From positions 124,001 through 188,000 of the forward strand of contig NZ_JABEQE010000005.1 in assembly GCF_014174375.1 (NCBI RefSeq): 64,000 nt of DNA. Direction: 5' to 3'. How positions within the stretch are numbered: the stretch's first letter is position 1; each line of letters begins with the position of its first letter. The position numbers and the translations under genes were made by a program. The notes beneath the pieces are model-generated. The model was not told the DNA's origin and did not search any database. It was given only the letters and a program-made list of their open reading frames with translations. This document shows, piece by piece, positions 246 through 40,277 of the stretch. This stretch comes from Gluconacetobacter asukensis (GTDB lineage Bacteria > Pseudomonadota > Alphaproteobacteria > Acetobacterales > Acetobacteraceae).

Positions 246-415
246 CTCAGAGCCTGACTGGAAAATGCGGGCTGGCGAGCGAGAGCGGCCCGCAGGGCCG
301 CGCCCGGCGTGTGTTGCCGAGCATCGGAGCGGAGTGGCCTTGATGACAATGAGCACCGAAGCGCAGGCAACGCGCGCTGGATCGCCGCCAGCGCGTATTT
401 TCGGTCAGGCTCTCA
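246..415 (-). repeat. Palindromic dispersed element, copy A
   Basis: This is an imperfect palindrome of about 170 bp filling most of the scpB-tatB gap. The outer arms are AGAGCCTGAC at 249-258 and GTCAGGCTCT at 404-413. Further arm matches run inward to a conserved CTGGCG/CGCCAG pair. An inner hairpin is GCGGCCC (285-291), a GCA loop, then GGGCCGC (295-301). Read on the minus strand, the core (CTCCGCTCCGATGCTCGG) matches the copies near 32.1 kb and 39.8 kb. I see no protein-coding gene in 233-503. Confidence 0.8.
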
Positions 416-503
416 GACTTGGACATTAAAACGGACCCAGACATGGCATGACGCGAACCGCGCGCCGGCACGCGCCGACATGCGCGGAAAGGATGGACAC
501 CTA

Positions 504-1232
504 TCACGCCCCCGGCGGGCCGGAAACCGCTTCCGTTTTCGCCCCGTCCGTCTTGGCCTCCTCCGGCGCGGCAGCCCGCAGCGCCGGATTGTCCGGCACA
601 TCCACCAGCAGTTCCTCGCGGCGCGGCAGGTCGCGCAGGTCGCGCAGGCCGAAATGACGCAGGAAATCGGCCGACGTTCCCCACAGGATCGGCCGCCCCG
701 GCACCTCCTTGCGGCCACGCGGCACGATCAGCGACGCCTCCAGCAAATTATCCAGCACCTGCTGGCTGAGCGACACGCCGCGAATCTCCTCGATTTCCGC
801 GCGAGTGCAGGGCTGGTGATAGGCAATGATCGCCAGGCTCTCCAGCGTGGCCCGAGGCAGCCGCCGGGGCCGCTGCAACACGCGGGTCAGGCGCGGCGCC
901 AGATCGGCCGCCGTCCTGAACTGCCAGCCGCCCGCCACCAGAACGGGCGCCACCCCCCGGCCGGCATATTGCGTCACCACGCCGTCGATCACGCCGCGCA
1001 CATAGGCGGCCAGATCCTCCGCCTCGGGCGGCACCAGCCCCTGTGCCTCCAGCAGATCGGCAATCGCGCGTTCGGACACCGGGTCGGGGCTGGCGAAGAT
1101 CATCGCCTCCACCAGCCGGACCGCAAGCTCCACGACACCCGCGCCCGACTCCTCATGCGTTCCAGGAATCGCGGCGCGCGATTCGTCACCGGAAACCGGC
1201 GCGGCCGGAATCTGCTGGCTGTCGTCGGTCAT
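504..1232 (-). CDS. scpB: Segregation and condensation protein ScpB
   Basis: ScpB is the winged-helix kleisin-interacting subunit of the SMC-ScpA-ScpB complex that compacts and segregates the chromosome. The 242-residue protein starts at the ATG in MTDDSQQ and contains the family core (SLAIIAYHQPCTRAEIEEIR, followed by GVSLSQQVLDNLLE and GRPILWGTSADFLRHFGL). A low-complexity Ala/Glu tail follows. The start overlaps the scpA stop by 4 bp (ATGA), which indicates translational coupling. The frame stays open far upstream of this ATG, but that extension is antisense noise over scpA. Confidence 0.93.
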   Translation of the reverse strand: MTDDSQQIPAAPVSGDESRAAIPGTHEESGAGVVELAVRLVEAMIFASPDPVSERAIADLLEAQGLVPPEAEDLAAYVRGVIDGVVTQYAGRGVAPVLVAGGWQFRTAADLAPRLTRVLQRPRRLPRATLESLAIIAYHQPCTRAEIEEIRGVSLSQQVLDNLLEASLIVPRGRKEVPGRPILWGTSADFLRHFGLRDLRDLPRREELLVDVPDNPALRAAAPEEAKTDGAKTEAVSGPPGA

Positions 1233-2110
1233 TCCGCCGCGTCCATCCTGTCCATGTCCGGATCGTTGGCTGCCTCGCCCCCCACATGGGGGCGCAGCAT
1301 GATCCGGCCGAATTGTTCGTCCTGACGCAGCTCGATCGTACCGTTGCGCGCCAGTTCCAGCCCGGCGATCAGCGTGCCGGCCATGGCCGCCCGGCGCTGC
1401 TGGATGCGCTCTTCCGCATCCTCGCCCTCCATGGCCGGACCACCCTCGGGCAGGAAGGAGCCAAGCTCGCACCATTCCCCACCGCCGGGAATGCTGTCCG
1501 CCCCCAGCAGCCGGTGCAACCGGGCCAGCGCGTCCTGCACCGTCCAGAAATGCATCCGCCGGGGCTGGTAGACACGCTTGCGCGCCCCCCGCCGCATGGC
1601 CGCCATATAGGCACCCATCAATTGCGACAGATCCAGCGCCAGCCCCGAGCGGTCGATTTCCGTCAGATCCTCGCGCTCGCCACGGGCAAACACGTCGCGG
1701 CCCAATTGGGGGCGTGCCCCCAGCCATGCCGCCGCCTGCCCGATCCGCGCCAGTTCGACCAGCCGCGCCTGGAGCAGTTCGGCCGCCTCCTCGGCGTCCA
1801 CATCCTCGCCGTCCTCGGCCGGCAGCAGCAGGCGCGACTTCAGCCAGGCCAGCCATGCGGCCATCACCAGCCAGTCGGCCGCCAGCTCCAGGCGGATGCG
1901 GCGGGCGGATTCGACGATGGCCAGATATTGCTCGACCAGTTGCAGGATCGAAATCCGCGCCAGATCGACCTTCTGCGCCCGGGCCAGCTCCAGCAGCAGG
2001 TCCAGCGGCCCTTCGAACCCATCCAGATGCAACATGGGCGCGGTCAGCCCATCGGGCAGGTCCCCCTCCTGCCCTTCCCCCGGCATGCGCTCAACGGGCT
2101 CCGTCACCAA
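1229..2110 (-). CDS. scpA: Segregation and condensation protein ScpA
   Basis: ScpA is the kleisin subunit that bridges SMC heads. The sequence has the family signature FEGPLDLLLELARAQKVDLARISILQLVEQYL (shown here only as FEGPLDLLLELARAQ in the N-terminal third) and a C-terminal winged-helix region. The longest reading begins at TTG (2110), and a GTG one codon later (2107) is an equally good start. It follows the SPOR protein gene by about 10 bp and overlaps scpB by 4 bp, so argS-SPOR-scpA-scpB probably form one transcript. Confidence 0.93.
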   Translation of the reverse strand: MVTEPVERMPGEGQEGDLPDGLTAPMLHLDGFEGPLDLLLELARAQKVDLARISILQLVEQYLAIVESARRIRLELAADWLVMAAWLAWLKSRLLLPAEDGEDVDAEEAAELLQARLVELARIGQAAAWLGARPQLGRDVFARGEREDLTEIDRSGLALDLSQLMGAYMAAMRRGARKRVYQPRRMHFWTVQDALARLHRLLGADSIPGGGEWCELGSFLPEGGPAMEGEDAEERIQQRRAAMAGTLIAGLELARNGTIELRQDEQFGRIMLRPHVGGEAANDPDMDRMDAAE

Positions 2111-2120
2111 CGGCCCGGTC

Positions 2121-3059
2121 CTAGAACCCGGCCAGCGTGCAGGCCAGCCCGTTCAGCCGCACATGCTCGCAGAACGACGTGGCCTGGGCGATGCTGGCAA
2201 ACCCGCGCGTGCGCAGCCGGAAGAAGACCGCCCCGTTGCGCTCGGTCCGCTCGATGATCGGCGTATGGCTCCCGAACAGGTCCGGATAATGCTGCGCCAG
2301 CCGCGCCCATTCCTTCTCGGCGGCCTGCTGCGAATCCAGCGCCGCAAGCTGCACGCCATAACGCCCCCCCGCCACCGCAGCCGGCGCCGCCGCTGGCGCG
2401 GCACTCGCGGCCGGCGGCACAGGCGCGGCCGGTTCTTCGGCAGGCGGCGTTGCCACCGGCGCGGAAGGTGCCGGGGCAACCGGCGCCGGCGCGGCAGCAC
2501 TCGGCCCCGCCGGCACGGCGCTGGCAGCCGGAGCCTCGGCCACAGGCGGGCTGACGGATGCCGCCGCCGCCGTAGACGCCGCCGAGGGTCCGGGCGCCGT
2601 GGCGTCGGTGGCCGGTGCTTCCGGCGGCTGACCATATTGCTGGGCCAGACGATCGGGCCGCGGCTGTTCCGGCCCCGGCGCCAGGCGGGCAACCGCACCG
2701 TCATCGCCGCTCGGCGCCTCGGCCCCCAGAACCTGCATGCCACCCGGATCGACCGGCCGCACCCGCACCGGGCCGGGCGGCGGCCCGATAACGGGAATAC
2801 CCGTCTGCTGATGCCCCAGCAGCGCCCAGCCGCCGATGGCGATCACCAGCAGGCCACCCAACCCGGCCGCGCCATAGGCCAGGCGCCGCGTGGTGGGGTC
2901 GGCGCCCAGCAACCCATCCAGCATGCCGCCCGCCCGGCGGGCCGGGCGCGAACGCGGCGGCGGCGCATCGTCATCGCCATAATCCGCGCTCATGCGCTCA
3001 CGCACGCGGTTCAGGCGATCCTCATACGGGTCGCGGCCGGACGGATCGGTATCGCTCAT
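2121..3059 (-). CDS. SPOR-domain membrane protein
   Basis: This 312-residue protein is probably a peptidoglycan-binding cell-envelope protein. It has a charged cytoplasmic N-terminus, one membrane segment at about residues 61-81 (AYGAAGLGGLLVIAIGGWAL), and a long Ala/Pro-rich linker at about 100-230. The C-terminal SPOR domain (GRYGVQLAALDSQQAAEKEW ... GLACTLAGF) would bind denuded glycan strands at the septum. SPOR proteins between argS and scpA are common in Alphaproteobacteria. The start overlaps the argS stop by 4 bp. Confidence 0.85.
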   Translation of the reverse strand: MSDTDPSGRDPYEDRLNRVRERMSADYGDDDAPPPRSRPARRAGGMLDGLLGADPTTRRLAYGAAGLGGLLVIAIGGWALLGHQQTGIPVIGPPPGPVRVRPVDPGGMQVLGAEAPSGDDGAVARLAPGPEQPRPDRLAQQYGQPPEAPATDATAPGPSAASTAAAASVSPPVAEAPAASAVPAGPSAAAPAPVAPAPSAPVATPPAEEPAAPVPPAASAAPAAAPAAVAGGRYGVQLAALDSQQAAEKEWARLAQHYPDLFGSHTPIIERTERNGAVFFRLRTRGFASIAQATSFCEHVRLNGLACTLAGF

Positions 3060-4849
3060 CGCATTTCCTCAACCGGCTCGACACCCAGCACCGCCAGACC
3101 GGAACGGATGACGGTCGCCGTCGTCTCGACCAGCGCCAGCTTCGCACGGGTGGCAACCAGGTCGTCTTCCTGCAGGAACCGCAATGTCGCATCATCGCGG
3201 CCACGATTCCACAGCATATGGAAATCCCCCGCCAGTTCACCCAGATAGAAGGCAACCCGATGCGGTTCATGCGCCTGGGCAGCACCCTCCACCGTACGCG
3301 GCCACTGGGCGATTCGCCGCAGCAGCGCCAGCTCGGCATCCGACCCGATTCCATCGAGCCCGGCCTCGGCCAGCGCCACGGGAGCGATCGCGGCCTCGCC
3401 CAGCATCTCCTGCGCCGCCCGCAGGACGGAGCGGCAGCGCGCATGCGCGTACTGCACGTAAAAGACCGGATTGTCGCGCGTCTGCGCCACCACCTGGTCC
3501 AGGTCGAATTCCATCTGCGCGTCGGCCTTGCGCGTCAGCATGGTAAAGCGCACCGCATCGCGCCCCACCTCGTCGATCAGGTCGCGCAGCGTGACGAAGG
3601 TCCCCGCACGCTTGGACATGCGCACCGGCTCCCCATCGCGCACGATCCGCACGATCTGGCACAGCAGCACGTCGAACCCGACGCTCTCCCCCCCCACGGC
3701 CAGCGCCTGCACCGCCGCCTTCATCCGGGTGACGTAGCCGCCATGGTCGGCGCCCCAGACATCGATCAGCAGGTCCGCGCCGCGACGCACCTTGTCGTCG
3801 TGATAGCCGATATCGTTGGCGAAATAGGTGTTCGACCCATCCGACTTGCGCAGCGGCCGGTCCACGTCGTCGCCGAAGGCGGTGGAGCGGAACAGGGTCT
3901 GGGGCCGGGCCTCCCAATCGTCGGGCAGCTTGCCCTTCGGCGGCTCCAGCACGCCTTCATACAGCAGGCCCTGCGCATCCAGCCGGGCAATGGCCTGGTC
4001 GGTCACGCCATCGGCCAGAATCTTCGCCTCGCTGGTGAAGACGTCATGCCGCACGCCCAGCGCGTCCAGATCCTCGCGGATCATCGCCATCATCGCGGCC
4101 ACTACGAAGGGCTTGACCGTACCCATCCAGGTCTCGGGCGCGGCCGGATGCCCATCCGGACCGGCCAGGCCGGTGCCGTGCTGCTCGGCCAGCGCCTGCC
4201 CCACCGGCACCAGATAATCGCCACCATACTGGATGCCGCCGGGCACCAGGGCCGCGAAAGCCTCCCGGTCCATCGTCGTGCCGATGGCCTCCAGGTACCG
4301 CCAATAGGCCGCCCAGGCCAGGGCGATGACCTGCGCCCCGGCATCGTTGATGTAATATTCCTTGGTGACCGCATAGCCGGCCTTGGCCAGCAGATTGGCC
4401 AGCGCGTCACCCACGACCGCGCCCCGGCAATGGCCAACATGCATCGGCCCCGTCGGGTTGGCCGAAACATATTCGACATTCACCCGCACGCCCTCGCCCA
4501 GCGTGGCATCGCCATAGGATTCGCCGGCACGCAGCACGTCACCCACCACGGCACGCAGCACCGATTCGTCCAGCGTCACGTTGACGAAACCGGGCCCGGC
4601 GGGCTCGGCTCGGGCAATGCCCGACACCTCGACCAGCGCCGCCGCCAGCTCGGCCGCGATCTCGGCCGGGCGCCGCCGCGCCGGCTTGGCCGCCAGCAGG
4701 GCGGCGTTGGTCGCCATGTCGCCATGGGCCGGGTCGCGCGTCGGGGTCAGTTCCACGCGCGCCGCCACCTCCTCCGGCAGGTCCGGAACGATCCGTCGCA
4801 GGGCATCGCGCACATGCGAGAGATAGCGGACGTACAGGCTGTCGGACAT
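3056..4849 (-). CDS. argS: Arginyl-tRNA synthetase
   Basis: ArgS is a class I aminoacyl-tRNA synthetase that charges tRNA-Arg. It is 597 residues long, close to the family norm. Visible features are the N-terminal additional domain, the HIGH-type motif HVGH at residues 137-140 within NPTGPMHVGHCRGAVVGDAL, a KMSKS-type loop (VRMSKRAGTFV) and the C-terminal anticodon-binding domain. Downstream genes SPOR-scpA-scpB are closely coupled to it. A perfect 11-bp stem hairpin separates it from dgt upstream. Confidence 0.97.
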   Translation of the reverse strand: MSDSLYVRYLSHVRDALRRIVPDLPEEVAARVELTPTRDPAHGDMATNAALLAAKPARRRPAEIAAELAAALVEVSGIARAEPAGPGFVNVTLDESVLRAVVGDVLRAGESYGDATLGEGVRVNVEYVSANPTGPMHVGHCRGAVVGDALANLLAKAGYAVTKEYYINDAGAQVIALAWAAYWRYLEAIGTTMDREAFAALVPGGIQYGGDYLVPVGQALAEQHGTGLAGPDGHPAAPETWMGTVKPFVVAAMMAMIREDLDALGVRHDVFTSEAKILADGVTDQAIARLDAQGLLYEGVLEPPKGKLPDDWEARPQTLFRSTAFGDDVDRPLRKSDGSNTYFANDIGYHDDKVRRGADLLIDVWGADHGGYVTRMKAAVQALAVGGESVGFDVLLCQIVRIVRDGEPVRMSKRAGTFVTLRDLIDEVGRDAVRFTMLTRKADAQMEFDLDQVVAQTRDNPVFYVQYAHARCRSVLRAAQEMLGEAAIAPVALAEAGLDGIGSDAELALLRRIAQWPRTVEGAAQAHEPHRVAFYLGELAGDFHMLWNRGRDDATLRFLQEDDLVATRAKLALVETTATVIRSGLAVLGVEPVEEMR

Positions 4850-4876
4850 GCGATGCGGCTTCCCACTGAAATACCG

Positions 4877-4903
4877 GCGCCGGGCGGATGCCCCGCCCGG
4901 CGC
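4877..4903 (-). terminator. Hairpin terminator after dgt
   Basis: A perfect 11-bp stem lies here: GCGCCGGGCGG (4877-4887), a 5-nt loop and its complement (4893-4903). It sits between the dgt stop and the argS start. On the minus strand it is followed by a short T-rich stretch (GGTATTTC). The weak T tract keeps confidence moderate. Confidence 0.5.
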
Positions 4904-4930
4904 GTCAGAATGATGATCTGGTCGGGCGTT

Positions 4931-6112
4931 TCAGCCCGGCACGGACAGATCCGTCAACCGTCGATGTTCTTCCATCGCGAATCGATCCGTCATCCCGGCT
5001 ATATAATCGGCCACGATCCGCCGCGCACCCATCGCGTCGGTGGCCCGCGCCTCCTGCCGCCAGCCATCAGGCAGCAGCGAGATATCGTTGGCCAGAATCG
5101 AGAAGATCGATTCGACCGCGATCCGCGCCTTGCGCGTCATGCGGTTCACCCGCCAATGCCGATACATCCGCGCGTAAAGGAAAGTACGGATCGCCCCGTT
5201 ATCGCGCGCCATGGCCGGGCTGTAGGCCACGACCGGCATGGCGGCACGGCGCACATCATCAGCCGATTGCGGGGCCAGTTCAGCCAGGTTGCGTCTTGTC
5301 TGCTCCGTCAGGTCCACCGCCAGGGCATTGATGACCCGGCGGATGGTCTCATGCCGCATCCGGTCCTGCACATGCGCCTCCTCGGCAGCGTCACCCGACA
5401 TGGCGACCCCGCCCGCCATTTCCCGAACCTGCGCCAGCGCCGCGCCCACCACCGGCAGATCCGCCAGATCCGCCAGATCCAGCAGGCCGGCGCGCATCCC
5501 GTCATCCAGATCGTGGGCGTGATAGGCAATATCGTCGGCCATGGCGGCAATCTGCGCCTCGACCGAGGCGTAACTGCCCAGGTCCAGCCCCAGCCCATCC
5601 GCATAGCGGGCGACATAGCCGGTCGGGTGGTCCACCGGGCCGTTATGCTTGATCAGCCCTTCCAGCGTTTCCCAGGTCAGGTTCAGCCCGTCGAAGTCGA
5701 AATAGCGGCGCTCCAGCTTCGTCACCTGCCGCAGGGTCTGGGTATTGTGGTCGAAGCCGCCCCAATCCTTCATGGCCGCAGCCAGCGCATCCTCTCCCGC
5801 ATGGCCGAACGGGGTGTGGCCCAGATCGTGGGCCAGCGACAGCGTCTCGGTCAGGTCCTCGTCCACCGACAGGCTGCGGGCGATCGAGCGCGCGATCTGC
5901 GCCACTTCCAGCGAATGCGTCAGCCGGGTGCGAAAGAAATCGCCCTGATGATTGACGAAGACCTGCGTCTTGTATTGCAGCGTGCGGAAGCCGGCGGAAT
6001 GCAGCACCCGGTCGCGGTCGCGCTGCCAGGGCGAACGGCTGGGGGATTCCGGCTCGGCATACAGGCGCCCCCGGGCGGTGGCGGTCTGGACAGCATAGGG
6101 TGCGACGCTCAT
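4931..6112 (-). CDS. dgt: Deoxyguanosinetriphosphate triphosphohydrolase-like protein
   Basis: This is an HD-superfamily dNTP triphosphohydrolase (dGTPase-like), which splits dNTPs to deoxynucleoside and triphosphate. It has 393 residues. Metal ligands are recognisable in RTRLTHSLEVAQIAR (H66) and the HD doublet at 95-96 in LAHDLGHTPFGHAGEDAL. The start chosen is the ATG at 6110-6112 (MSVAPYAVQT). A longer upstream reading lacks family similarity. It is divergent from erpA, an arrangement common in Alphaproteobacteria. Confidence 0.93.
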   Translation of the reverse strand: MSVAPYAVQTATARGRLYAEPESPSRSPWQRDRDRVLHSAGFRTLQYKTQVFVNHQGDFFRTRLTHSLEVAQIARSIARSLSVDEDLTETLSLAHDLGHTPFGHAGEDALAAAMKDWGGFDHNTQTLRQVTKLERRYFDFDGLNLTWETLEGLIKHNGPVDHPTGYVARYADGLGLDLGSYASVEAQIAAMADDIAYHAHDLDDGMRAGLLDLADLADLPVVGAALAQVREMAGGVAMSGDAAEEAHVQDRMRHETIRRVINALAVDLTEQTRRNLAELAPQSADDVRRAAMPVVAYSPAMARDNGAIRTFLYARMYRHWRVNRMTRKARIAVESIFSILANDISLLPDGWRQEARATDAMGARRIVADYIAGMTDRFAMEEHRRLTDLSVPG

Positions 6113-6242
6113 ATATAACCCCAATCCCGGATGGGTGGCGGGCGCCCGGCGCCATAAGAACCGGACCGCCCCCTGTCGATAACCCGCCCGGCGCCGCAAG
6201 GCCAGCATGCTGGCTCAGCATGCCGACCCGGGCCGCGCGACG

Positions 6243-6629
6243 ATGGTGACCCCGATGGACATGCCGCTCCCTTCTTCCCCCTCGCCCGACACCGCCTTCC
6301 GTGTCTCGCCCGAGGCCGCAACCCGGCTTCAGGACATCATCGCCGCCCAGCCGGGCGTCGATGCCACCTCGACGGGGCTACGGGTCACGGTGCTGGCCGG
6401 CGGCTGCAACGGCTTTCAGTACAGCTTCGCCCTGGATGGCGAAGCCCGCCCCGACGACATCGTGGTGCCCGCCGGCAGCGCCCACGTGCGGGTCGACCCG
6501 GCGAGCCTGGACCTGCTGTCGGGTGCGGAACTGCATTTCAACGATTCGCTGATGGGCGCGCATTTCACCGTGCGCAATCCCAACGCCACCTCGTCCTGCG
6601 GGTGCGGCACCAGCTTCTCGATCGATTGA
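6243..6629 (+). CDS. erpA: Iron-sulfur cluster insertion protein, HesB/IscA (ErpA-like)
   Basis: This A-type carrier delivers Fe-S clusters to apoproteins. The three conserved cysteines are present: one in VLAGGCNGF and two in the C-terminal SSCGCGTSF. In-frame ATGs occur at 6207, 6243, 6255 and 6261. 6243 is a compromise and gives 128 residues with a short variable N-terminus before FRVSPEAATRL. It lies between divergent dgt and co-oriented xthA, a neighbourhood typical of alphaproteobacterial erpA. Confidence 0.88.
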   Translation: MVTPMDMPLPSSPSPDTAFRVSPEAATRLQDIIAAQPGVDATSTGLRVTVLAGGCNGFQYSFALDGEARPDDIVVPAGSAHVRVDPASLDLLSGAELHFNDSLMGAHFTVRNPNATSSCGCGTSFSID

Positions 6630-6647
6630 GCAGGCCGCCATTCCAAG

Positions 6648-7430: not shown

Positions 7431-7436
7431 AGCCGC

Positions 7437-7464
7437 TCCCCGCCAGCGGTCACGCTGGCGGGGA
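7437..7464. terminator. Bidirectional hairpin between xthA and the YXWGXW gene
   Basis: A perfect 12-bp stem, TCCCCGCCAGCG, is followed by a GTCA loop and CGCTGGCGGGGA. It sits in the 52-bp gap between two convergent genes, where it can end transcription from both sides. There is no long T run. Confidence 0.6.
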
Positions 7465-7482
7465 CCTCGTTACATCATCCGG

Positions 7483-7821: not shown

Positions 7822-7933
7822 TGCGAACCAACTCCTGTCTGCACACGGGATCTTCACGTCCCGTCAGCCTCAATATGGTCCGACCATCATGGCGCTGGAA
7901 TGGCGAAATATGACCGTATGGAACAGCGAGCCA

Positions 7934-10164: not shown

Positions 10165-10231
10165 GACCGCAGCAGAGCCCATCGCGTCATTCCGCGCAAT
10201 GATGCTCCGCTGGCAATGCGCCATCTCCGGC

Positions 10232-31549: not shown

Positions 31550-31568
31550 GCGGTCCGCAACCGGGGCG

Positions 31569-31943: not shown

Positions 31944-32061
31944 CGGCAGATCCCCTTGCTTGAACGGCTTACGGATGAATCCGCCGCTAACAATGCGGGA
32001 AAGTCAGCGACATATGGACAGGGGACCTTGGTGCCTCCTCCCCACCCCCACGTCAACCTCA

Positions 32062-32225
32062 GTTTCTGCCCGGAAAGGCGCGCTGGCGGCGATCCGACGC
32101 GCGTTTCCTGCGCTTCGGTGCTCACGGCCATCAAGGCCGCTCCGCTCCGATGCTCGGAAACACACGCCGGGCGCGGCCCGTTCCGGACCGCTCTCGCTCA
32201 CCAGCACACCTTTCCGGGCAGAAAC
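32062..32225 (+). repeat. Palindromic dispersed element, copy B1
   Basis: This is a 164-bp element with 17-bp perfect terminal inverted repeats: GTTTCTGCCCGGAAAGG at 32062-32078 and its complement at 32209-32225. The inner hairpin GCGGCCCG-TTC-CGGACCGC (32173-32191) has one mismatch. The core is homologous to copies A and C. The rest of 31944-32419 holds no recognisable gene. Confidence 0.85.
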
Positions 32226-32389
32226 CCGTGCGCCTTGGAAGACATTTGCATCGGCAATCCGACGCCGTTTTCCGCGCTTCGCGGCGGGCGGCCATCAAGG
32301 CCGCTCCGCTTCGATGCTCGGAAACACACGACGAGCGTGCCGCTGCGCGGCACTCTCGCTCACCAGAACCCCGTTTCCGAGCAGAAACT
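32226..32389 (+). repeat. Palindromic dispersed element, copy B2 (tandem unit)
   Basis: This is a second unit in direct tandem with B1 at a 164-bp period (GCCATCAAGG at 32127 and 32291). It is diverged in its left half. Its right end (GTTTCCGAGCAGAAAC) matches the B1 right arm. Its inner hairpin is GTGCCGC-TGC-GCGGCAC (32337-32353), where both arms differ from the other copies yet still pair perfectly. Confidence 0.8.
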
Positions 32390-32419
32390 CCATACATCTT
32401 TGTTGGAGAAGCCCCCGTT

Positions 32420-34117
32420 TCAAACAGCGGCGGCGACGGCCTTTCCGTCCGACAGGCGCCAGACGCGGTCCAGTTTTTCCACGCCGACCAGTCGATGCGC
32501 GATCAGGATCACCGTGCGGCCGGCCGTCACGTCATAGAGCGTGGTCAGGAATTCGCGCTCGGTCTCGGCATCCAGCCCGGTCGCCGGCTCGTCCAGGATC
32601 AGGATCGGCGCGTCGGAGAGCAGGGTCCGGGCCAGCGCGATCCGCCGCCCCTGGCCACCCGAGAGCGACGCTCCGCCCTCGCCCAGCCATGCATCCAGCC
32701 CCTCGGGCAGCGCGCGGACCACATCGCCCACCTGGGCACGATCCAGCGCCGTCCACAGATCGGCCTCGGTCGCATCAGGCCGGCCCAACAACAGATTGGC
32801 GCGGATCGTATCGGCAAACAGATGCGTGGCCTGAGACAGCCATGCCATCCGCTGGCGCACCGACCCACTTTCCAACGTCGCCAGATCCTCGCCACCCAGC
32901 ATGATCCGCCCCGATGACGGCGACGCAACCTTCAGCAGCAGCGCCGCGAGCGAGGATTTGCCAATCCCCGACGGCCCCAGGATCGCAACTCGCGCTCCCT
33001 GCCGGATCTCCAGATTCAACCCGTCGAATACGGCAGCCCGATCCGCCTGCCAGCGGAACGAGACCTGCTCAAAGCGGATATCGGTGCCCACCGGCGCCGG
33101 CCGCGTACCCACGCTGACCGCCGGCCCGTCACTCTCGCCGACAGCAACCACCCGCGCCGCCGCACGGCTGATCCCACCGGCCAGCGCCCCGGCCCGCGTC
33201 AGGCCACCGGCACTCTCGAACCCCGCGATCACAAGAAACAGCAGCCCTACCCCACGCGCCGCCGGGATCGGCCCCAGCCCGACACCCAGGATCGCAGCCA
33301 GCACCGCCAGCACCGCCGCCTGACCGCACAGATAGGACACCCCGCCCATCACCGCCAGCAACCGCGCCTGCCGCGCCTGCCCCCGCAGCAACGCGGCGTC
33401 GCGCGCCCGCGCGTGCGACAACATGCGTCCTTCAGCCCCAAAGGCACGGATCTCGCGCAGCCCGGTGACCAGATCCAGCACCCCGATCCGCAGATCGGCC
33501 AGACGATGCGTCAGGATCGCGGCCTCGCGCCGCCCCATCAGCGCCGCCGCCAGCGGCAGCACAAAGGCGCCAACCACGAACAGCCCGCCGACAAGCACCG
33601 CCAGCACCGGATCGACAGGCCCAATCGCCAGTACCAGAAACGGCAGGACCAGACACGCCCCAGCCAGCGGAACCATGATCCGCAGATACAGCCCGTCCAG
33701 CGCCTCGACATCCGACACCAGGCGCGACAGCAGGTCGCCCGCGCGGCGGAACCCCAGCCCGGCCGCCGCCCCACCGGCAAGGCGGCGAAAGAACCAGACG
33801 CGGATATCGGCCAGCGCCCGGAACATCGCATCATGCGTGACCAGACGCTCGACATAGCGCAGCACCACGCGCGCCACACCCGATGCACGCAGCACCACCA
33901 GCCCCGCCACAGCGCCGCCGAAGGCCAGCCCGGCCATGCGCGCGCCGGCCCCACGCATCAGCACCAGCCCGGCCAGCAACGCCAGCAGCGACAATACGGC
34001 ACCCGCAGCCAGTCGCGGCGCGCGGCGCTTCCACAACCCCATAATGCACAGCACCGGCACCAGACCATCACGATCCTCGGCCGCCCGGCCGGACAGGGAT
34101 CTGTCAGACATGGACAT
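32420..34117 (-). CDS. cydC: Heterodimeric thiol/heme ABC exporter subunit CydC
   Basis: CydDC exports cysteine and glutathione to the periplasm, and is needed to assemble cytochrome bd and c-type cytochromes. This subunit has 565 residues: six membrane spans (about 25-310) and an ABC domain with Walker A GPSGIGKSSLAALLL, signature LSGGQGRRIALARTLL and Walker B/D-loop LILDEPATGLDAETE. The start at 34117 overlaps cydD by 14 bp; an in-frame ATG 6 nt downstream is possible. No cydAB genes occur in the window. Confidence 0.88.
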   Translation of the reverse strand: MSMSDRSLSGRAAEDRDGLVPVLCIMGLWKRRAPRLAAGAVLSLLALLAGLVLMRGAGARMAGLAFGGAVAGLVVLRASGVARVVLRYVERLVTHDAMFRALADIRVWFFRRLAGGAAAGLGFRRAGDLLSRLVSDVEALDGLYLRIMVPLAGACLVLPFLVLAIGPVDPVLAVLVGGLFVVGAFVLPLAAALMGRREAAILTHRLADLRIGVLDLVTGLREIRAFGAEGRMLSHARARDAALLRGQARQARLLAVMGGVSYLCGQAAVLAVLAAILGVGLGPIPAARGVGLLFLVIAGFESAGGLTRAGALAGGISRAAARVVAVGESDGPAVSVGTRPAPVGTDIRFEQVSFRWQADRAAVFDGLNLEIRQGARVAILGPSGIGKSSLAALLLKVASPSSGRIMLGGEDLATLESGSVRQRMAWLSQATHLFADTIRANLLLGRPDATEADLWTALDRAQVGDVVRALPEGLDAWLGEGGASLSGGQGRRIALARTLLSDAPILILDEPATGLDAETEREFLTTLYDVTAGRTVILIAHRLVGVEKLDRVWRLSDGKAVAAAV

Positions 34118-35858
34118 GCCCCTCCTCGACAGGCGCCATCAGGCCCGCACCAGGCTGCGAACAGCGCATTTTTCCCAGATCGAGGCACGGACCGGCAAAC
34201 GCCCGCACCCCCGCCGCATGGCTGGACAGGATCACCGTCCGCCCCCGCGCCAGAATGCGCAGGCTGGCGAAGATCTCGCTCTCGGTCTCCGGGTCCAGAT
34301 GCGCCGTCGGCTCATCCAGCAGCAGCAGCGGCGCGTCCTTCAGATAGGCCCGCGCAATCGCCACCCGCTGCGCCTGCCCGCCCGACAGGCCGAACCCGCC
34401 TTCACCGATCGGCGTATCCAGCCCCTCGGGCAGATCCGCGGCAAAGCGGTCGACCGCCGCCGCGTGCAGGGCCGCGCGCAATGCATCCTCGTCGGCATCG
34501 GGCCGGGCGAACAGAATATTCTCGCGCAGCGTGCCGGCAAACAGCACCGGTTTCTGCCCGATCCACGATATCAGCCCCGATTGGGTCGCCGGCGCCATGG
34601 TGGCCAGGTCCACCCCGCCAACCAGCACGCGGCCGCTATCCGGTACGATAAAGCCCAGCAGCATCTCGATGATCGTCGATTTGCCGGCGCCGGAGGGCCC
34701 GACCAGCGTCAGGATCTCCCCGGCCGGGACGGTGAAGCTCAACGCTTCGAAGACCGGCCCGCGCGCGGCATCCCACGCAAAGGTGACGTTCTCGAAAGCC
34801 ACCGATACCCCGCCCTCCGAGAGGACAGGCACCGCACCCCGTGCCGTAGCGGCCGATACCGTCCCGTCCGGCAGGTCCCCCATCGCCGACGCGGCACCGG
34901 ACGCATGGGCGCGATCCTGATAGGCCAGGGCCAGCGCGCGCAGGGGGGCGAAGAATTCCGGCACCAGCAGCAGCACGAACAGGCTGCGCGCCACCGCATC
35001 GGCCAGCGCGGCCGATGCGCCGCCATGCCGCAGAACCTGCACCATCCCGCCGTCACGCACCACGATCAGCACCAGCGCCACCACCATCGCGCAATCGATC
35101 GACGCCGAGGACAGAAACGCCACCCGCAGCACCTTCATGGTCCGCCGGCGCAGTTCGTCGGCGGCATCGGCCAGCCGCCCTGCCTCGTCATCGGCCCGGT
35201 TCAGCAGGACGATGGTGGCAATGCCGCGCACCCGGTCGAGGAACCGGGCCTGCAACCGGGTCATGGCCAGAAACTGGTTGCGCGACGCCACGGCGGCACC
35301 GATGCCGAAGACGGCCTGCCCCACCGGCACGGCCAGGCCGCACACGATCATGATCAGCCCCGCGCCCGGCTGCATCAGCGCGGCCAGCGCCGCGATCAGC
35401 CCCGGAACCGCGATCCACAGAACCGAGGCCGGAATCCAACGCGCGAAGAACCCGTCCAGGGCCTCGATCCGGTCGACGGCCAGCGCCGTCAGCTCCGCAC
35501 TGTGCCGACGCCGCAACAGCGCCGGCCCGCCCCGCAGGATGGCCCCCAGTACCTCGTCGCGCAGCCGCGCGCGGGCACCACGCCCGGCCCGGGCCGCCGA
35601 AACGTCACCCAGGGCCAGCAGCAGGGCGCGCAGCAAGGCCAGCCCCGCCAGGGCGGCCAGCAACTGGCCGGCACCGGGCCATGCGGCCGTACCGGGCCCG
35701 ACCAGCCCCCGCGCGAGGATGGATGCCACACACCATGCCTGGCCGACGGCCACCAGCCCTGCCAGCATGCCGCAGCCCATGACGGGCATCGCCTGCCTTC
35801 GTCCCAGGCGCGACTGCGCCCGTGTCCAGGCACGCATCACCATTTTGTCACCGCTCAT
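34104..35858 (-). CDS. cydD: Heterodimeric thiol/heme ABC exporter subunit CydD
   Basis: This is the partner of CydC, an ABC exporter half of 584 residues. The N-terminal membrane domain contains GRGARARLRDEVLGAILRGG, a CydD-like coupling region. The ATPase domain shows Walker A GPSGAGKSTIIEMLLG, signature LSGGQAQRVAIARAYL and LLLLDEPTAHLDPETE. It overlaps cydC by 14 bp, so the two are made together. It ends the co-directional block before the stress-response locus. Confidence 0.88.
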   Translation of the reverse strand: MSGDKMVMRAWTRAQSRLGRRQAMPVMGCGMLAGLVAVGQAWCVASILARGLVGPGTAAWPGAGQLLAALAGLALLRALLLALGDVSAARAGRGARARLRDEVLGAILRGGPALLRRRHSAELTALAVDRIEALDGFFARWIPASVLWIAVPGLIAALAALMQPGAGLIMIVCGLAVPVGQAVFGIGAAVASRNQFLAMTRLQARFLDRVRGIATIVLLNRADDEAGRLADAADELRRRTMKVLRVAFLSSASIDCAMVVALVLIVVRDGGMVQVLRHGGASAALADAVARSLFVLLLVPEFFAPLRALALAYQDRAHASGAASAMGDLPDGTVSAATARGAVPVLSEGGVSVAFENVTFAWDAARGPVFEALSFTVPAGEILTLVGPSGAGKSTIIEMLLGFIVPDSGRVLVGGVDLATMAPATQSGLISWIGQKPVLFAGTLRENILFARPDADEDALRAALHAAAVDRFAADLPEGLDTPIGEGGFGLSGGQAQRVAIARAYLKDAPLLLLDEPTAHLDPETESEIFASLRILARGRTVILSSHAAGVRAFAGPCLDLGKMRCSQPGAGLMAPVEEGHVHV

Positions 35859-35946
35859 GACCGCGACCTATAATCGAAGCGCCCAGCCAGGGACACCCAT
35901 TCCCGATCGTGAATCGCCCCGTCATATGGCCACCCGCCATGCGGAT

Positions 35947-37749
35947 TCAGCGGACGAGATCGCCCGTTTCATCCGCTTTCAGAGGGAACAGAAGGATATA
36001 GCGCGTCCCGTTCTCCTCGATGATCTTCAGGCTTCCACCCAATTGCCGCGCGAAACCGCGGATCAGCTGCATGCCGATCCCGCTTCGCTCCTCGCCCGAC
36101 AGCCGGTATCCACCGGCCAGCCCGATCCCGTCATCGGCAATGTCCAGCCGCGCCTGGCTGGGCTCCACCCGCTCCAGCCTGACGGAAATGGTGCCGCGCC
36201 GCCCGTCGGCAAAGGCATGCTTGATGGCATTGCTGACAATCTCGGTGATGATCAGCGCCAGCGGCACCGCCTGGTCGGGCTCCAGCTCCAGCGTCGCCGC
36301 ATGGACCGAAAGGTCGAGGCGCCCGCTGCCCGCATGCCCCGCCGCCTGCATGATCTGGCTGCACAGCTCGGTGACGAAATGCTCCATGTTCATGCTGAAC
36401 AGCTCGCCTTCGGCGTACAGGTAACGATGCAGGGTCGCCAGCGCCCGCACCCGGTCGCGGGCCTGGGCGAATTCCTCGCGCGCCTCGGTCTGGCGGATGC
36501 GGTTGGCCTGCAGGTTCAGAAGCGAGGCGACGATCTGCAGGTTGTTCTTGACCCTGTGATGCATCTCCTTCAGCAGCAGCTCCTGCCTCACCGCCGCCCG
36601 TGCCAGGCGCCGCTCGTCGCGGGCCAGGCTGCGGGTCGCCTGCGTGAAGGCCCGCGCCAGCTGGCGGATCTCGATCGGCACCACCCAGTTCGAACGCGCA
36701 TTGAACACGCCGTCGCCCGCCTGCCACCGCTCGACCGAATCGGTCAGCCGACGCAAGGGCGCGATCAGCAGCGCATTGGCGCTCTGCGTCACCATGATCA
36801 GGCAGAATCCCAGCAGGCTGACGATGACGAACAGCCAGATCACGAACATGACCAGCGCCTGGGTTTCGGCCGGGTTGCGGCGGGTCATCGTCAGGGCCGC
36901 GACACCGCCTTCGATCGGGCCATACGCGAATGCGGCATCCCCGACGCTCAGGGTCTGCCGGGTATCGCGCTGTACGGACGTCATGCCTCCAAGCCAGCGC
37001 ACGACATCCGGCGGCGGCGGCCCCGGAGAGGCGCAATCGTCGCACAAGGGGGAAAGCGTGCGGTCACGACCGATGATCCACGCATCGATCGCGCCATTCT
37101 TCTGCATGAAATCCAGCCGCGGATCGCCGATCTGCAAATGATGCCGGCTCCAGACCACAGGCATGACAGCGGTCAGGAAGCCGGATCGCACCGTCCCCAA
37201 TGAATCGGCGATCGGCGTGGAAAGCGTGACCCGTATATAGGAATGCCGGACCGTATCTGGCGACGGGATATCCAGTTGCACCACCCGCACATCCCCGCTG
37301 AAGCGCGGCAGGTCCTCATACGGCACCTGGTCGGGCAGAGGCAGCGGCGTGTCGCCATTGACCGCCAGCAGCACGCGCCCCTCATCATCCAGCAACGCCA
37401 GCCGATAGAATTCCCCGGTCAGCGAGCGGGCCATCTGCAGGGTCCGCACAAACCCATTCTCGTCCAGCGACATGCGACTGACGGAAGACAGCAGGGCGCC
37501 GATGTGATCGACATCGTGGCGCACCTCCAGATCGATCCGGCTGATGGCCATGTCCGCCCGAAAGGCCGGCGCCTGAAGCGTATGACGATAGCTGTTCCAT
37601 GCCTGAAAGCCGGCGATAATCGCCATCGGACCGGCCGCGCAGAAGATGATGGCGATCATCCGCGCGCTCACCGTCCCGAACAGCTGCAGAAACCATCCGC
37701 TATAGGGCACGCCCCACCCCGGCTGCCTCCGCTCGCCACCCTTGTCCAT
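35947..37749 (-). CDS. Membrane histidine kinase, HisKA_2/HWE-type (general stress response)
   Basis: This 600-residue sensor kinase has a membrane segment at about 30-52 and another at about 305-325, enclosing a periplasmic sensor region. HAMP-like sequence then leads to the HisKA_2 dimerisation motif MHHRVKNNLQIVASLLNLQA with the phospho-His. A GHKL ATPase domain follows (LIITEIVSNAIKHAFADGRR, then DDGIGLAGGYRLSGEERSGI). Its ATG directly abuts the nepR stop. Kinases of this class feed PhyR in Alphaproteobacteria, so a PhyK-like role is inferred. Confidence 0.88.
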   Translation of the reverse strand: MDKGGERRQPGWGVPYSGWFLQLFGTVSARMIAIIFCAAGPMAIIAGFQAWNSYRHTLQAPAFRADMAISRIDLEVRHDVDHIGALLSSVSRMSLDENGFVRTLQMARSLTGEFYRLALLDDEGRVLLAVNGDTPLPLPDQVPYEDLPRFSGDVRVVQLDIPSPDTVRHSYIRVTLSTPIADSLGTVRSGFLTAVMPVVWSRHHLQIGDPRLDFMQKNGAIDAWIIGRDRTLSPLCDDCASPGPPPPDVVRWLGGMTSVQRDTRQTLSVGDAAFAYGPIEGGVAALTMTRRNPAETQALVMFVIWLFVIVSLLGFCLIMVTQSANALLIAPLRRLTDSVERWQAGDGVFNARSNWVVPIEIRQLARAFTQATRSLARDERRLARAAVRQELLLKEMHHRVKNNLQIVASLLNLQANRIRQTEAREEFAQARDRVRALATLHRYLYAEGELFSMNMEHFVTELCSQIMQAAGHAGSGRLDLSVHAATLELEPDQAVPLALIITEIVSNAIKHAFADGRRGTISVRLERVEPSQARLDIADDGIGLAGGYRLSGEERSGIGMQLIRGFARQLGGSLKIIEENGTRYILLFPLKADETGDLVR

Positions 37750-37935
37750 CTAGCCCCTGGTCTTGCGGTCTTCCTCGATCAGGCGCAACAGCTCCTCGGG
37801 AAGAGGCTCGGAAGCGACTTCATCGAAAAGCTCATGCAGCCCGCGCTTGAGCCATAGCTCGAACGGATCGTCTCGCTGGGTGGTCTTGCTGGCTTTCAAC
37901 GGCCGCGTCGGACGGGAATCCTTGCGGGACGTCAT
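37750..37935 (-). CDS. nepR: Anti-sigma factor NepR
   Basis: NepR holds EcfG inactive until phosphorylated PhyR captures it. It is 61 residues, the typical size. The core DDPFELWLKRGLHELFDEVA followed by EPLPEELLRLIEED matches the two short helices that contact EcfG or PhyR. The start is the ATG at 37935. The stop TAG directly precedes the kinase ATG with no gap, and ecfG lies 158 bp upstream on the same strand. Confidence 0.9.
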   Translation of the reverse strand: MTSRKDSRPTRPLKASKTTQRDDPFELWLKRGLHELFDEVASEPLPEELLRLIEEDRKTRG

Positions 37936-38093
37936 CGGTGATCCCTGAGATCCACTAATACCCCGCCAACCCTCTGAAACCTGCATCCCGATCGTGTCGA
38001 TGTCGGCGGACAGTAAAACAGCCTGCGACCTACCGTCCAGCCGTCCGACTCAGGATTTAACCGCCAGGCAAGCGAAGGGTTGCGGGGCGTGGA

Positions 38094-38669
38094 TCAGGGA
38101 CGTGTCGCTTCAGCCTCGCGTGTCCCCATCCGTGCGCCCAGCAGGCCACGCATGCGGGCCACCCGCGCCTTGATCTGCGGCGATTCCTGGTCCTCCCCGA
38201 TCATCCAGCTTTCCAGCTGGCGACGGGCACGGAAGACCCGGCTCTTGGCCGTGCCGACCGCGCAGCCGGTCGCCTCGGCCAGATGTTCGTAGCTCATGCC
38301 GTGCAGGACCACCATGATCAGGGCCTCGCGCTGGTCTTCGGGCAGGCGGTCCAGTGCCATCGCCAGGTCCTTCAGCGCCAGCCGGTCCTCATGCGGGGCC
38401 GTGGTCGCCAGCACCGACGCGGGAATATCCTCGATATCGGTGGTCTCCCGCCGCTTGCGCAGGTCGGAAATGAAGCGGTTACGGAGGATGCGGTGCATCC
38501 AGGCAGAAAAATTGGTCCCGGGGATGAAACTGTCCTGGGCGGCCAGCGCATTGCACACGGCATCCTGCACCAGGTCCTCAGCCATCGTTCGGTTCCGTGT
38601 CAGGGCAAGTGCCTGAACGCGCAGACGCGGGAGGATCGCGATGACCTGGTCATGGAAATTATTTGCCAT
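38094..38669 (-). CDS. ecfG: General stress ECF sigma factor EcfG
   Basis: EcfG (ECF15) directs general stress transcription. It is 191 residues, starting at the ATG at 38669 (MANNFHDQV). Region 2 is LTRNRTMAEDLVQDAVCNAL then TNFSAWMHRILRNRFISDLR. Region 4 is LPEDQREALIMVVLHGMSYE then AVGTAKSRVFRARRQLESWM. It is divergent from phyR across a 363-bp gap and upstream of nepR and the kinase. Confidence 0.93.
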   Translation of the reverse strand: MANNFHDQVIAILPRLRVQALALTRNRTMAEDLVQDAVCNALAAQDSFIPGTNFSAWMHRILRNRFISDLRKRRETTDIEDIPASVLATTAPHEDRLALKDLAMALDRLPEDQREALIMVVLHGMSYEHLAEATGCAVGTAKSRVFRARRQLESWMIGEDQESPQIKARVARMRGLLGARMGTREAEATRP

Positions 38670-39032
38670 TGTTCTGTTCCTCGCTTGCCGAACTTGCATC
38701 AGTGTAATGGCAGGAGTGTGTTTTAATCATGACGAAGACGTGAGAAGCGTTTAGAAAACCCCAATCTCCCGTGAAAATCCCGTCATGGCCCCAATCCGAT
38801 ACTTTGAAATCAGCATCTGCCGCCGTTTGTGCACATATCCTGCCGGTCGCCACCCGCGGGCGGGGCGAAGCGTTCCATCCGCCGTCCGTATGTCGCGATA
38901 GCGACACGACCGTCCGGCGAAGGGCAAGCCTACTCCCTAGTTCCTCTTGCGGACAATTTTAACGCTGTCATGATCAACAACGTAACGTGTTTCTTGTTAA
39001 CGTAACGTGTTCCTTGCGGAGTTGACCGTTCA
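38670..39032. promoter_or_regulatory. Divergent ecfG/phyR control region
   Basis: This 363-bp region has no credible gene. It contains a palindrome TGTCGCGATAGCGACA (38891-38906; 6-bp arms, GATA centre). It also holds a tandem direct repeat just before phyR: AACGTAACGTGTTTCTTG at 38979-38996 and the same sequence with one change at 38999-39016 (20-bp period). A GGAAC exists on the minus strand but has no GTT-type -10 at 16-17 bp, so I cannot assign an EcfG promoter. Confidence 0.45.
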
Positions 39033-40178
39033 ATGCCCCTCTCACGGCGGCAGGATCTGATCCGGGCCCTTCCCTATGCCAGGCGATACGCCCGTGCCCT
39101 GACCGGCAGTCAGCCACGCGGCGATCTCCTGGTGGCCGAAAGCCTGCGGGGCCTGGCGGTGGCGGAAGCCGGGCCATTGCCGGCACGGCAGTGCCTGTAC
39201 CAGTGGATCTCGCGGCAGTTCAGGCCCGGACCGGCCTCGGAGGCCGAAGCCCTGAACATTCTGGAGCGCAAGCTCCTGCTTCTGACATCGCTGGAAGAAC
39301 TCACGATCGCCGACGCCGCGCAGGTCCTGGACCTGGGCGAGGCCGAAGCCGCCGAGATCCTCGCCCGCGCCCATGCCGGCCTGCGCAAGGTCGCCCAGAC
39401 CTCCATCCTGATCATCGAGGATGAGCCGATCATCGCGATGGATATCGAGGATCTGGTCCGCTGGTGCGGCCATCAGGTCGCCGGCGTGGCCGCGACCGAG
39501 GCCGACGCGATCGAACTGGCCCGCCAGACCAAGCCGGGCCTGATCCTCGCGGACATCAATCTGGGCACGGGCGGCGACGGCGCGAACGCCGTAGCCAGCA
39601 TCCTGCGCCATCACATGGCACCGGTCATCTTCGTCACCGCCTACCCCGAACGCCTGCTGACGGGCGAGGCCATCGAACCCGCCTTCGTCATCACCAAACC
39701 GTTCGAGCCGATGACCCTCGTACCAAGCAGTCACCGGCGGCCCCCAAAACCTGCCTTGAGAGCCGGTCTGGCGGCGGTCCGACGCGTGTTCCCTGCGCGC
39801 CGGTGCTCACGGCCATCAAAGGCCGCTCCGCTCCGGTGCTCGGGAACACACGCCGGCCGCGGCCCCTTGGGCCGCTCCCGCTCGCCAGACCGGCCCTCAA
39901 GGCAGGTTTCCACCTCACGTCACGCGCTTCTGACCCGGCGCGGTCGATGCCGCCCCGATACCCGGGAAACACACACCGGCCGCGGCCCCTTGGGCCGCTC
40001 CCGCTCGCCAGACCGGCTCTCAAGGCAGGTTTCCCCCTCACGTCACGCGCTTCTGACCCGGCGCGGTCGATGCCGCCCCGATACCCGGGAGACGCACGCC
40101 GGCCGCGGCCCCTTGGGCCGCTCCCGCTCGCCAGACCGGCTCTCAAGGCAGGTTTCCCCCCACGTCACGCGCTTCTGA
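39033..40178 (+). CDS. phyR: Stress response regulator PhyR, C-terminus frameshifted into repeats
   Basis: Phosphorylated PhyR sequesters NepR and frees EcfG. Residues 1-120 form the sigma-like domain (LPYARRYARALTGSQPRGDL, then LEELTIADAAQVLDLGEAEA). Residues 124-229 form a receiver with acidic pocket E129/D130, phospho-acceptor D174 (ILADINLG), T202 and K222 (ITKPFEPMTL). The open frame continues to 40178, but residues after L229 are Arg/Pro-rich translation of the repeat. The +1 frame from 39721 reads YQAVTGGPQNLP and stops at 39757-39759, which resembles a normal PhyR end. The natural end is therefore probably near 39759, with a frameshift at about 39720. Confidence 0.85.
   Translation: MPLSRRQDLIRALPYARRYARALTGSQPRGDLLVAESLRGLAVAEAGPLPARQCLYQWISRQFRPGPASEAEALNILERKLLLLTSLEELTIADAAQVLDLGEAEAAEILARAHAGLRKVAQTSILIIEDEPIIAMDIEDLVRWCGHQVAGVAATEADAIELARQTKPGLILADINLGTGGDGANAVASILRHHMAPVIFVTAYPERLLTGEAIEPAFVITKPFEPMTLVPSSHRRPPKPALRAGLAAVRRVFPARRCSRPSKAAPLRCSGTHAGRGPLGRSRSPDRPSRQVSTSRHALLTRRGRCRPDTRETHTGRGPLGRSRSPDRLSRQVSPSRHALLTRRGRCRPDTRETHAGRGPLGRSRSPDRLSRQVSPHVTRF
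39747..39909 (+). repeat. Palindromic dispersed element, copy C1
   Basis: This is a 163-bp element whose outer arms are AAACCTGCCTTGAG (39747-39760) and the perfect complement CTCAAGGCAGGTTT (39896-39909). The arms extend inward to about 27 bp with one mismatch. The inner hairpin is GCGGCCC-CTT-GGGCCGC (39859-39875). The left arm supplies the likely stop of phyR (TGA at 39757). The core matches copies A and B. Confidence 0.85.
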
Positions 40179-40277
40179 CCCGGCGCGGTCGATGCCGCCC
40201 CGATACCCGGGAAACACACACCGGCCGCGGCCCTTTGGGCCGCTCCCGCTCGCCAGACCGGCTCTCAAGGCAGGTTT
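39898..40277 (+). repeat. Tandem 122-123 bp repeats, partial copies of element C
   Basis: Three head-to-tail units have periods of 123, 123 and 122 bp (CAAGGCAGGTTT at 39898, 40021, 40144 and 40266). Each unit repeats the right half of C1 (from CCCGGGAAACACACACCGG to GCTCGCCAGACCGGCTCTC). About 55 bp not found in C1 (TCACGTCACGCGCTTCTGAC onward) precedes that half in each unit. Because 123 is divisible by three, long spurious frames cross the array on both strands. Nothing else is seen between 39760 and 40344. Confidence 0.88.

What the first reader, a model, noticed from the sequence alone, without database searches (positions are those of the whole stretch)
246..40277. Dispersed palindromic element with self-compensating arms at three intergenic loci
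Elements of about 163-170 bp occur at 246-415 (A), 32062-32389 (B1, B2) and 39747-39909 (C1). All share a core containing CTCCGCTCCGATGCTCGG or a close variant. The outer arms differ between loci (A AGAGCCTGAC, B GTTTCTGCCCGGAAAGG, C AAACCTGCCTTGAG), yet in each full copy the left arm is perfectly complementary to its own right arm. The inner hairpin also covaries: GCGGCCC/GGGCCGC in A and C, but GTGCCGC/GCGGCAC in B2. Compensatory change suggests selection for, or a mechanism maintaining, a long hairpin in RNA or single-stranded DNA. Alternatively the core may insert into existing palindromes and inherit their arms. All three loci lie just 3' of a gene (scpB, cydC, phyR).
Basis: partly seen in the sequence, partly recalled or inferred. 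Interest (0 to 1): 0.8.

Follow-up and report, generated by a model that had tools for sequence, protein, structure and literature searches.

The report
Mobile hairpin sitting at stop codons
A short mobile DNA hairpin, present in more than a hundred copies in this acetic-acid bacterium and in scattered related bacteria, sits mostly right at the stop codons of genes and keeps its two arms matching each other although the arm sequence differs from copy to copy.

Summary
The window copies belong to a palindromic repeat of about 162 bp with 144 places (partial and tandem units included) in this Gluconacetobacter genome. Relatives are scattered over Alphaproteobacteria (21 of 385 genomes), with weak hits beyond.

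It is mobile: some orthologous sites are empty, with a 3-bp, TNA-type duplication. Arms covary (415 two-sided cells against 102 shuffled), also between orthologs (34 two-sided changes, 3.6 expected). Copies with near-identical cores carry different, self-matching arms.

Best reading: a non-autonomous mobile palindrome whose insertion into a stop codon is silent, whose arms are kept paired at the DNA level, and whose constrained strand is not the mRNA strand. The enzyme is unknown. Empty sites do not support insertion of the core into existing palindromes. No match in Rfam.

The parts
250..412 (-). Copy A, full element; arms GAGCCTGAC/GTCAGGCTC; not at a stop codon (91 bp past scpB, 18 bp before the next gene start)
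   Evidence: present in G000 and G007, empty in G004, G001, G005, G006, G010
247..249 (.). 3-bp target duplication, one side (TCA on +, TGA in element orientation)
   Evidence: sequence and single copy in empty sites
413..415 (.). 3-bp target duplication, other side (TCA on +)
   Evidence: sequence
32062..32225 (+). Copy B1, full element, 17-bp perfect outer arm
   Evidence: orthologous copies with other matched arms in G001, G004, G005, G007, G010
32252..32388 (+). B2, tandem unit without its own left arm; ends 31 bp past the stop of cydC (32420, minus strand)
   Evidence: G007 has four such units
39747..39909 (+). Copy C1, full element at the 3' end of phyR; in G004 the phyR stop TGA lies inside the left arm
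39910..40277 (+). Three partial tandem units of about 123 bp (3' part of the core plus right arm)
   Evidence: (family D1)
   Evidence: gene call

Best explanation
These are copies of a non-autonomous mobile palindrome (MITE-like). SHOWN: a unit of about 162 bp with matched outer arms, a conserved core and usually a side hairpin inserts with a 3-bp, TNA-type duplication; arms and inner helices covary; arms change as pairs and are largely decoupled from the core; three quarters of the matched-arm copies abut a stop codon in one orientation; the strand opposite to that gene folds best. INFERRED: a transposase supplied in trans cuts at TNA. Insertion into a stop codon is silent, because TGA is duplicated and TA plus the element's first purine is again TAG or TAA. 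Copies elsewhere, or with the strongly folding strand in the mRNA next to the stop, are mostly lost by selection. Arm pairing is kept by template-switch-like correction between the two arms during DNA synthesis and by exchange between copies, probably with selection for folding of the strand opposite to the gene, for example as a single-stranded DNA form used in mobility.
For: Empty sites and duplication: A and C19:44926 exact; flanking trimers equal in 17 of 71 copies (8.4 by permutation, maximum 15 in 5000); of 19 copies with TNA on both sides 15 repeat the middle base and 2 are complementary. Stop adjacency: 52 of 69 left, 2 of 69 right, against 230 of 12030 point-orientations and 38 of 466 TNA-preceded non-coding points in the window; six of nine annotated plasmid loci have a gene stop within 4 nt of the arm. 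Paired arm change: 34 two-sided and 19 one-sided among 527 outer-arm pairs in 31 loci, 3.6 two-sided expected, while unpaired columns differ at 119 of 1993. Strand: opposite strand more stable in 76 of 77 copies, z -11.0 against -8.2 in 24 sampled copies, 47 of 50 distant copies by energy. Precedent for template-switch compensation: PMC8794818 (passages).
Against: No enzyme was found: 10 PF01609 loci show no matching ends, no Y1 transposase, no candidate with matching ends in 1.2 Mb of G004. Outer arms vary more than known transposon ends usually do. CTGA-preceded non-coding points lie at stops in 22 of 57 cases, so target preference alone explains part of the adjacency. Three copies outside Alphaproteobacteria have the stop on the other side, as has one plasmid copy (5-6 bp). 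A T-C mismatch shared by 10 of 67 copies (column 12/155) shows that correction is not immediate. One-sided ortholog differences favour wobble on the opposite strand only weakly (24 against 17). The harm of the other orientation is not tested.
Confidence: 0.5

Rival explanations
1. Domesticated 3'-end element: hosts keep copies at stop codons because the structure next to the stop helps the upstream gene (mRNA stability, ribosome behaviour, termination).
For: Orientation and stop adjacency in several orders; REPs within 15 nt of a stop are reported to stall ribosomes (PMC12306157 passages).
Against: The better-folding strand is not the mRNA strand; sites are gained, lost and internally deleted between close species.
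Confidence: 0.17
2. Oriented targeting: the insertion machinery itself chooses stop codons in one orientation, for example by inserting one folded DNA strand.
For: 52 of 69 against 2 of 69; two arm types at the same stop in different species; strand-specific fold.
Against: Matched-arm copies away from stops exist (16 of 69 abut no stop on either side) and show no preferred orientation by my reading; only translation can read a stop as in frame.
Confidence: 0.15
3. A structured RNA gene on the strand opposite to the abutting gene.
For: Covariation and stronger fold of that strand, G-U far above A-C.
Against: Target duplications lie directly outside the arms, so no promoter travels with the unit on the outside (inference); no Rfam family; same effect expected for single-stranded DNA.
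Confidence: 0.1
4. Arms covary only because whole elements are replaced by other copies or re-inserted at the same site; there is no correction or selection within a copy.
For: Locus L028 carries arms ATGTTGGCCCGG in G000 and G001 but GAGGCTGGCCGT in G004, G005 and G010; inner modules are shuffled between copies.
Against: At locus B outermost arm bases stay with the locus while inner arm pairs change two-sidedly between species; ortholog pairs with at most 3 two-sided outer-arm changes still show 23, 1.8 expected (39 pairs).
Confidence: 0.15

Closest known systems
YPAL / RU-2 of Yersinia (PMC2229807, passages and section 11)
   Same: About 168 bp, not A+T-rich, target duplications, empty and filled sites, associated with upstream genes
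   Different: Duplications of 3-26 bp and targets next to dyad symmetry there; here TNA of 3 bp, arms brought along, stop-abutting. Sequences not compared.
ERIC, RUP, Correia/NEMIS, RPE (PMC2229807, passages)
   Same: Small non-autonomous palindromic repeats; ERIC effect is orientation-dependent
   Different: Fixed terminal repeats and mostly TA duplications there; here arms vary freely but match within each copy
REP / REPIN and RAYT (PMC12306157 and PMC5082802, passages)
   Same: Palindromic, some within 15 nt of a stop codon
   Different: 20-40 bp (abstract of PMC3733652 in the listing) and moved by a Y1 transposase; none found here
RIME and A/B/C palindromes of rhizobia (PMC2573895, PMC2245857, passages)
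   Same: Intergenic structured repeats in Alphaproteobacteria
   Different: Identity untested.
IS5 family, IS1031 group (recalled, from no call)
   Same: TNA duplication and ends like GAGCCTG
   Different: No transposase with such ends found
Integron attC sites (recalled, from no call)
   Same: Hairpin of one strand recognised by fold, variable sequence
   Different: No integron features looked for or seen; no conserved terminal boxes

Membership tests
MITE (miniature inverted-repeat element) | short, terminal inverted repeats, no coding capacity of its own | tested here: met
   about 162 bp, matched arms; no conserved protein sought, frames shown
MITE (miniature inverted-repeat element) | target-site duplication and empty sites | tested here: met
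MITE (miniature inverted-repeat element) | terminal repeats shared with an autonomous element | tested here: inconclusive
   none among 10 PF01609 loci or in 1.2 Mb of G004; other families not searched
REP/REPIN with RAYT | Y1 (RAYT) transposase in the genome | tested here: not met
   PF01797: 0 in the own genome, controls ring in 5 of 14
Rfam RNA family | match to a curated family | tested here: not met
   0 at gathering in the window; none over the elements at E <= 1 in L106 and L010
RIME | sequence identity to published RIME1/RIME2 | not testable with these tools
   sequence not in the papers read
YPAL / RU-2 | sequence identity; targets with dyad symmetry | tested here: inconclusive
   no sequence compared; empty sites at A, C19:44926, C2:124884 and C11:25038 show no palindrome by eye
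IS1031-group derivative | TNA duplication of 3 bp | tested here: met
   (the group's rule is recalled)
attC-like single-strand site | recombination of one folded strand | not testable with these tools
   only the fold asymmetry is shown

The most novel reading that the evidence does not exclude
A class of mobile element spread over the Proteobacteria that is recognised by the fold of one DNA strand (conserved junction core, arms that only have to pair) and inserts in a fixed orientation into stop codons, so that each insertion is silent for the protein.
Probability: 0.2. Interest if true: 0.88.

Novelty: new variant of a known kind. Interest (0 to 1): 0.65.

Why it matters
It is a widespread repeat for which I found no description (Rfam; open-access papers; most subscription papers are not in that library). 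Two of its features make open questions testable: how palindromes keep their arms matched (correction or selection, with more than a hundred natural replicates per genome and ortholog sets), and how a mobile element comes to lie at the one place in a gene where insertion is silent. It could also mislead predictions of small RNAs, terminators and small ORFs.

Tried and rejected
Core insertion into existing palindromes: not supported by four empty sites. RAYT: no Y1 transposase. Rfam RNA: none. IS5-type partner with matching ends: none among 10 PF01609 loci (the scan covered about 1.7 kb on each side) or in 1.2 Mb of G004. One reverse-transcriptase ORF (L408) was not followed up. My first gene caller had learned wrong-strand ORFs and was replaced. 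A first null for stop adjacency (0.3%) is too low, because genes cut at locus ends counted as non-coding; I use. RNAalifold's local helix 2 on the gene strand is probably wrong; a long inner stem is better supported. Phage records: no match. Alignment A3 holds both strands of some loci and was not used.

Rows dropped: A2 holds 67 of the 71 copies chosen for arm match out of 89 whole copies (98 places), so its arm counts lean towards pairing; the less selected figure is (193 copies). The core-against-arm table uses only copies with at most 2 non-Watson-Crick arm pairs, which limits one-sided differences, and its lowest bin is 12 non-independent pairs. One search keeps 49 of 58 ortholog pairs (9 dropped for unmatched arms), then one pair per locus (31). 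One search uses 69 of 71 matched-arm copies (2 near contig ends); of the 17 other copies 6 are left-adjacent and 0 right. samples 24 of 77 copies.
Full report
OBSERVATION. The window shows the three loci as described. A is an inverted relative of B1 (arms 295-408 and 32066-32179, 89% complementary; alignment). Single-strand folds of A, B1 and C1 have z-scores of -5.8, -6.4 and -10.7. B2 is a tandem unit without a left arm and C1 is followed by three partial tandem units.

COPY NUMBER AND HOST. The genome that holds the window (G000, 4.39 Mb, 64 contigs) has 51 BLAST places for B1, 83 places for a 32-base core pattern at up to 3 mismatches, 0 in the reversed control, and 144 covariance-model places at E <= 0.001 among 150 scored, tandem and partial units included. 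All 14 genomes of the genus that were searched match. The genus is Gluconacetobacter by record titles; contig lengths identify G004 as G. aggeris LMG 27801, G007 as G. tumulicola LMG 27725, G001 as G. takamatsuzukensis LMG 27800, G005 as G. liquefaciens DSM 5603 and G010 as G. dulcium LMG 1728.

WIDER DISTRIBUTION. With a model from 30 more diverse copies (A4, R2), 21 of 385 genomes of the class match at E <= 1e-5, in 20 genera, and 30 of 398 in a draw from the phylum: 21 Alphaproteobacteria and 9 others, the latter with best E of 4.5e-9 to 6.4e-6 (the two draws overlap). Ten loci from eight of the nine other genomes were read: the motif TGCTCA is in all ten and identical TNA on both sides in three (L426, L427, L428). 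Plasmid relatives (28 records) are from Sphingobium, Shinella, Agrobacterium, Phyllobacterium, Bosea, Mesorhizobium, Allorhizobium, Novosphingobium, Aminobacter and Ensifer (a Sphingobium plasmid already). No phage record matches B1. No Rfam family.

MOBILITY. Of 89 whole copies, 40 could be placed in the 1.2 Mb of G004 that I fetched; 20 were printed. Sites are precisely empty at A and C19:44926 (one TGA where G000 has TGA-element-TGA) and nearly so at C2:124884, C11:25038, C1:428350 and C1:442409, where one flank has changed. At A the element is in G000 and G007 and absent from G004, G001, G005, G010 and G006; six further species show no element but an unalignable spacer. Among 71 matched-arm copies the flanking trimers are TGA/TGA in 13 and equal in 17 (8.4 by permutation, maximum 15 of 5000); of 19 with TNA on both sides 15 repeat the middle base directly and 2 palindromically, which separates target duplication from mere extension of the arms. 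G004 has internally deleted hairpins of 57-62 bp where G000 has full copies at C19:2158, C4:117702 and C23:24314.

ANATOMY. On the strand opposite to the abutting gene the consensus is a three-way junction: outer arms, a side hairpin and a long stem with conserved purine-rich internal loops around GAGCANCGNAGCG and TGAGCANCGNAGCG; 62 pairs at -108 kcal/mol, against 46 pairs at -68 on the gene strand. Some relatives lack the side hairpin.

COVARIATION. On A2 (67 arm-matched copies) 34 of 46 pairs show a change on both sides; 415 two-sided cells, 102 in shuffles and 40-82 with slid partners. In the less selected set of 193 copies from six genomes, 160 have at most 2 non-Watson-Crick pairs of 17 outer-arm pairs. 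Between orthologs, one pair per locus (31 loci; flanks on average 95.3% and 93.7% identical), the outer arms show 34 two-sided compensated and 19 one-sided changes among 527 pairs, with 3.6 two-sided expected under independence; unpaired columns differ at 119 of 1993. The two-sided rate (6.5% of pairs) is close to the unpaired rate (6.0%), as expected if a change in either arm is about as often copied to the other arm as erased. Template switching as a source of compensatory change is described in PMC8794818 (passages). At locus B, by eye, the arms of G004, G005 and G001 differ from each other and are perfectly matched over 25-26 bp, while those of G010 and G000 have a few mismatches. Against immediate correction: a T-C mismatch at columns 12/155 is shared by 10 of 67 copies.

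DECOUPLING OF ARMS AND CORE. Among non-orthologous copies with at most 2 mismatched arm pairs, those whose cores differ by less than 2% (12 pairs of copies, not independent) still differ at 3.67 of 17 arm pairs two-sided and 0.42 one-sided; at 10-13% core divergence the figures are 5.18 and 1.06. At one stop codon (L028) two unrelated arm types occur in five species and do not follow relatedness. So copies exchange cores or are replaced. The recent A copy shares its arm type with copies of the same core type, so arms are not rewritten at each insertion.

STOP CODONS. With gene calls retrained from six clear genes, 76 of 86 copies with an upstream gene have it on the element's own strand. Of 69 matched-arm copies 52 have the stop of a coding-scored ORF between -4 and +14 of the left arm edge (26 exactly at 0; TGA 39, TAG 7, TAA 6) and 2 have the mirrored arrangement; of 17 other copies 6 and 0. 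Background in the window: 230 of 12030 point-orientations, 38 of 466 TNA-preceded and 22 of 57 CTGA-preceded non-coding points lie at a stop. A preference for CTGA thus explains part of the adjacency but not the orientation. In other alphaproteobacterial genomes an ORF of at least 100 codons ends within 16 nt of the left edge in 30 of 47 loci and of the right edge in 10 of 47; among 21 loci under 55% G+C, 13 and 2. Of nine plasmid loci read with their annotation, six have a gene stop within 4 nt of the left arm (Sphingobium dmpG, Bosea, Allorhizobium, Novosphingobium, Agrobacterium vitis, Shinella), one has a gene ending 5-6 bp from the right side and two neither. Not universal: outside Alphaproteobacteria G585, G654 and one G427 copy have the stop on the right side.

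STRAND. The strand opposite to the gene folds better in 76 of 77 G000 copies (RNA -115.4 against -96.7 kcal/mol); z-scores are -11.0 against -8.2 with RNA and -9.7 against -7.4 with DNA parameters, lower in 21 of 24 sampled copies each; in 50 distant copies 47 by energy and 37 by z. On the gene strand A-C mismatches exceed G-T at 26 column pairs and fall short at 8 (169 copies); on the opposite strand these are wobble pairs. Between orthologs the trend is weak (A-C 24, G-T 17, other 23). The constrained strand is therefore probably the one opposite to the gene; whether as single-stranded DNA or as antisense RNA is open.

MECHANISM. I favour a transposase-moved palindrome with TNA targets, for which stop codons are silent landing sites: TGA is duplicated, and TA followed by the element's first purine is again a stop. 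Orientation would follow if the strongly folding strand in the mRNA directly after the stop is harmful; REPs within 15 nt of a stop are reported to stall ribosomes (PMC12306157, passages). This last step is inference, and no enzyme was identified.

COMPARISON. The nearest by description is YPAL/RU-2 (PMC2229807); ERIC, RUP and Correia are the same kind of thing (passages); REP differs in size and enzyme; RIME could not be tested. I file it as a new variant of bacterial MITE-like palindromic repeats, not as a member of any of these families.

Noticed in passing
window 39711-39770: phyR in G000 is 11 nt shorter than in G004 just before copy C1, which shifts the frame: G004 ends ...MTLAIATYQAVTGGPQNLP* inside the left arm, G000 reads on through the element.
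   Followed up: partly
G000 C1:276606 (L071): The left arm contains the last codons and stop of the host gene, also present in the G004 site without the element; either the right arm copied host sequence or G004 lost the element.
   Followed up: partly
G000 C1:525329 (L049): A copy with two different ends: left GAGCCTGAGCG-like... type, right GAGGCTGTCTGAAAAG type.
   Followed up: no
L028 and orthologs L244, L253, L264, G004 C7: Same stop codon, two unrelated arm types in five species, not following relatedness.
   Followed up: partly
G000 contig ends C3, C13, C21, C24: Elements lie at or near contig ends; the copies at the starts of C13 and C21 share the same left flank, so the draft assembly probably breaks there.
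   Followed up: no
L119 (G007, locus B): Four tandem units at locus B where G000 has two and G004 one.
   Followed up: no
L408, G000:C13:14169-14585: The only reverse-transcriptase domain match (PF00078) in the genome, in an open frame of 548 codons.
   Followed up: no
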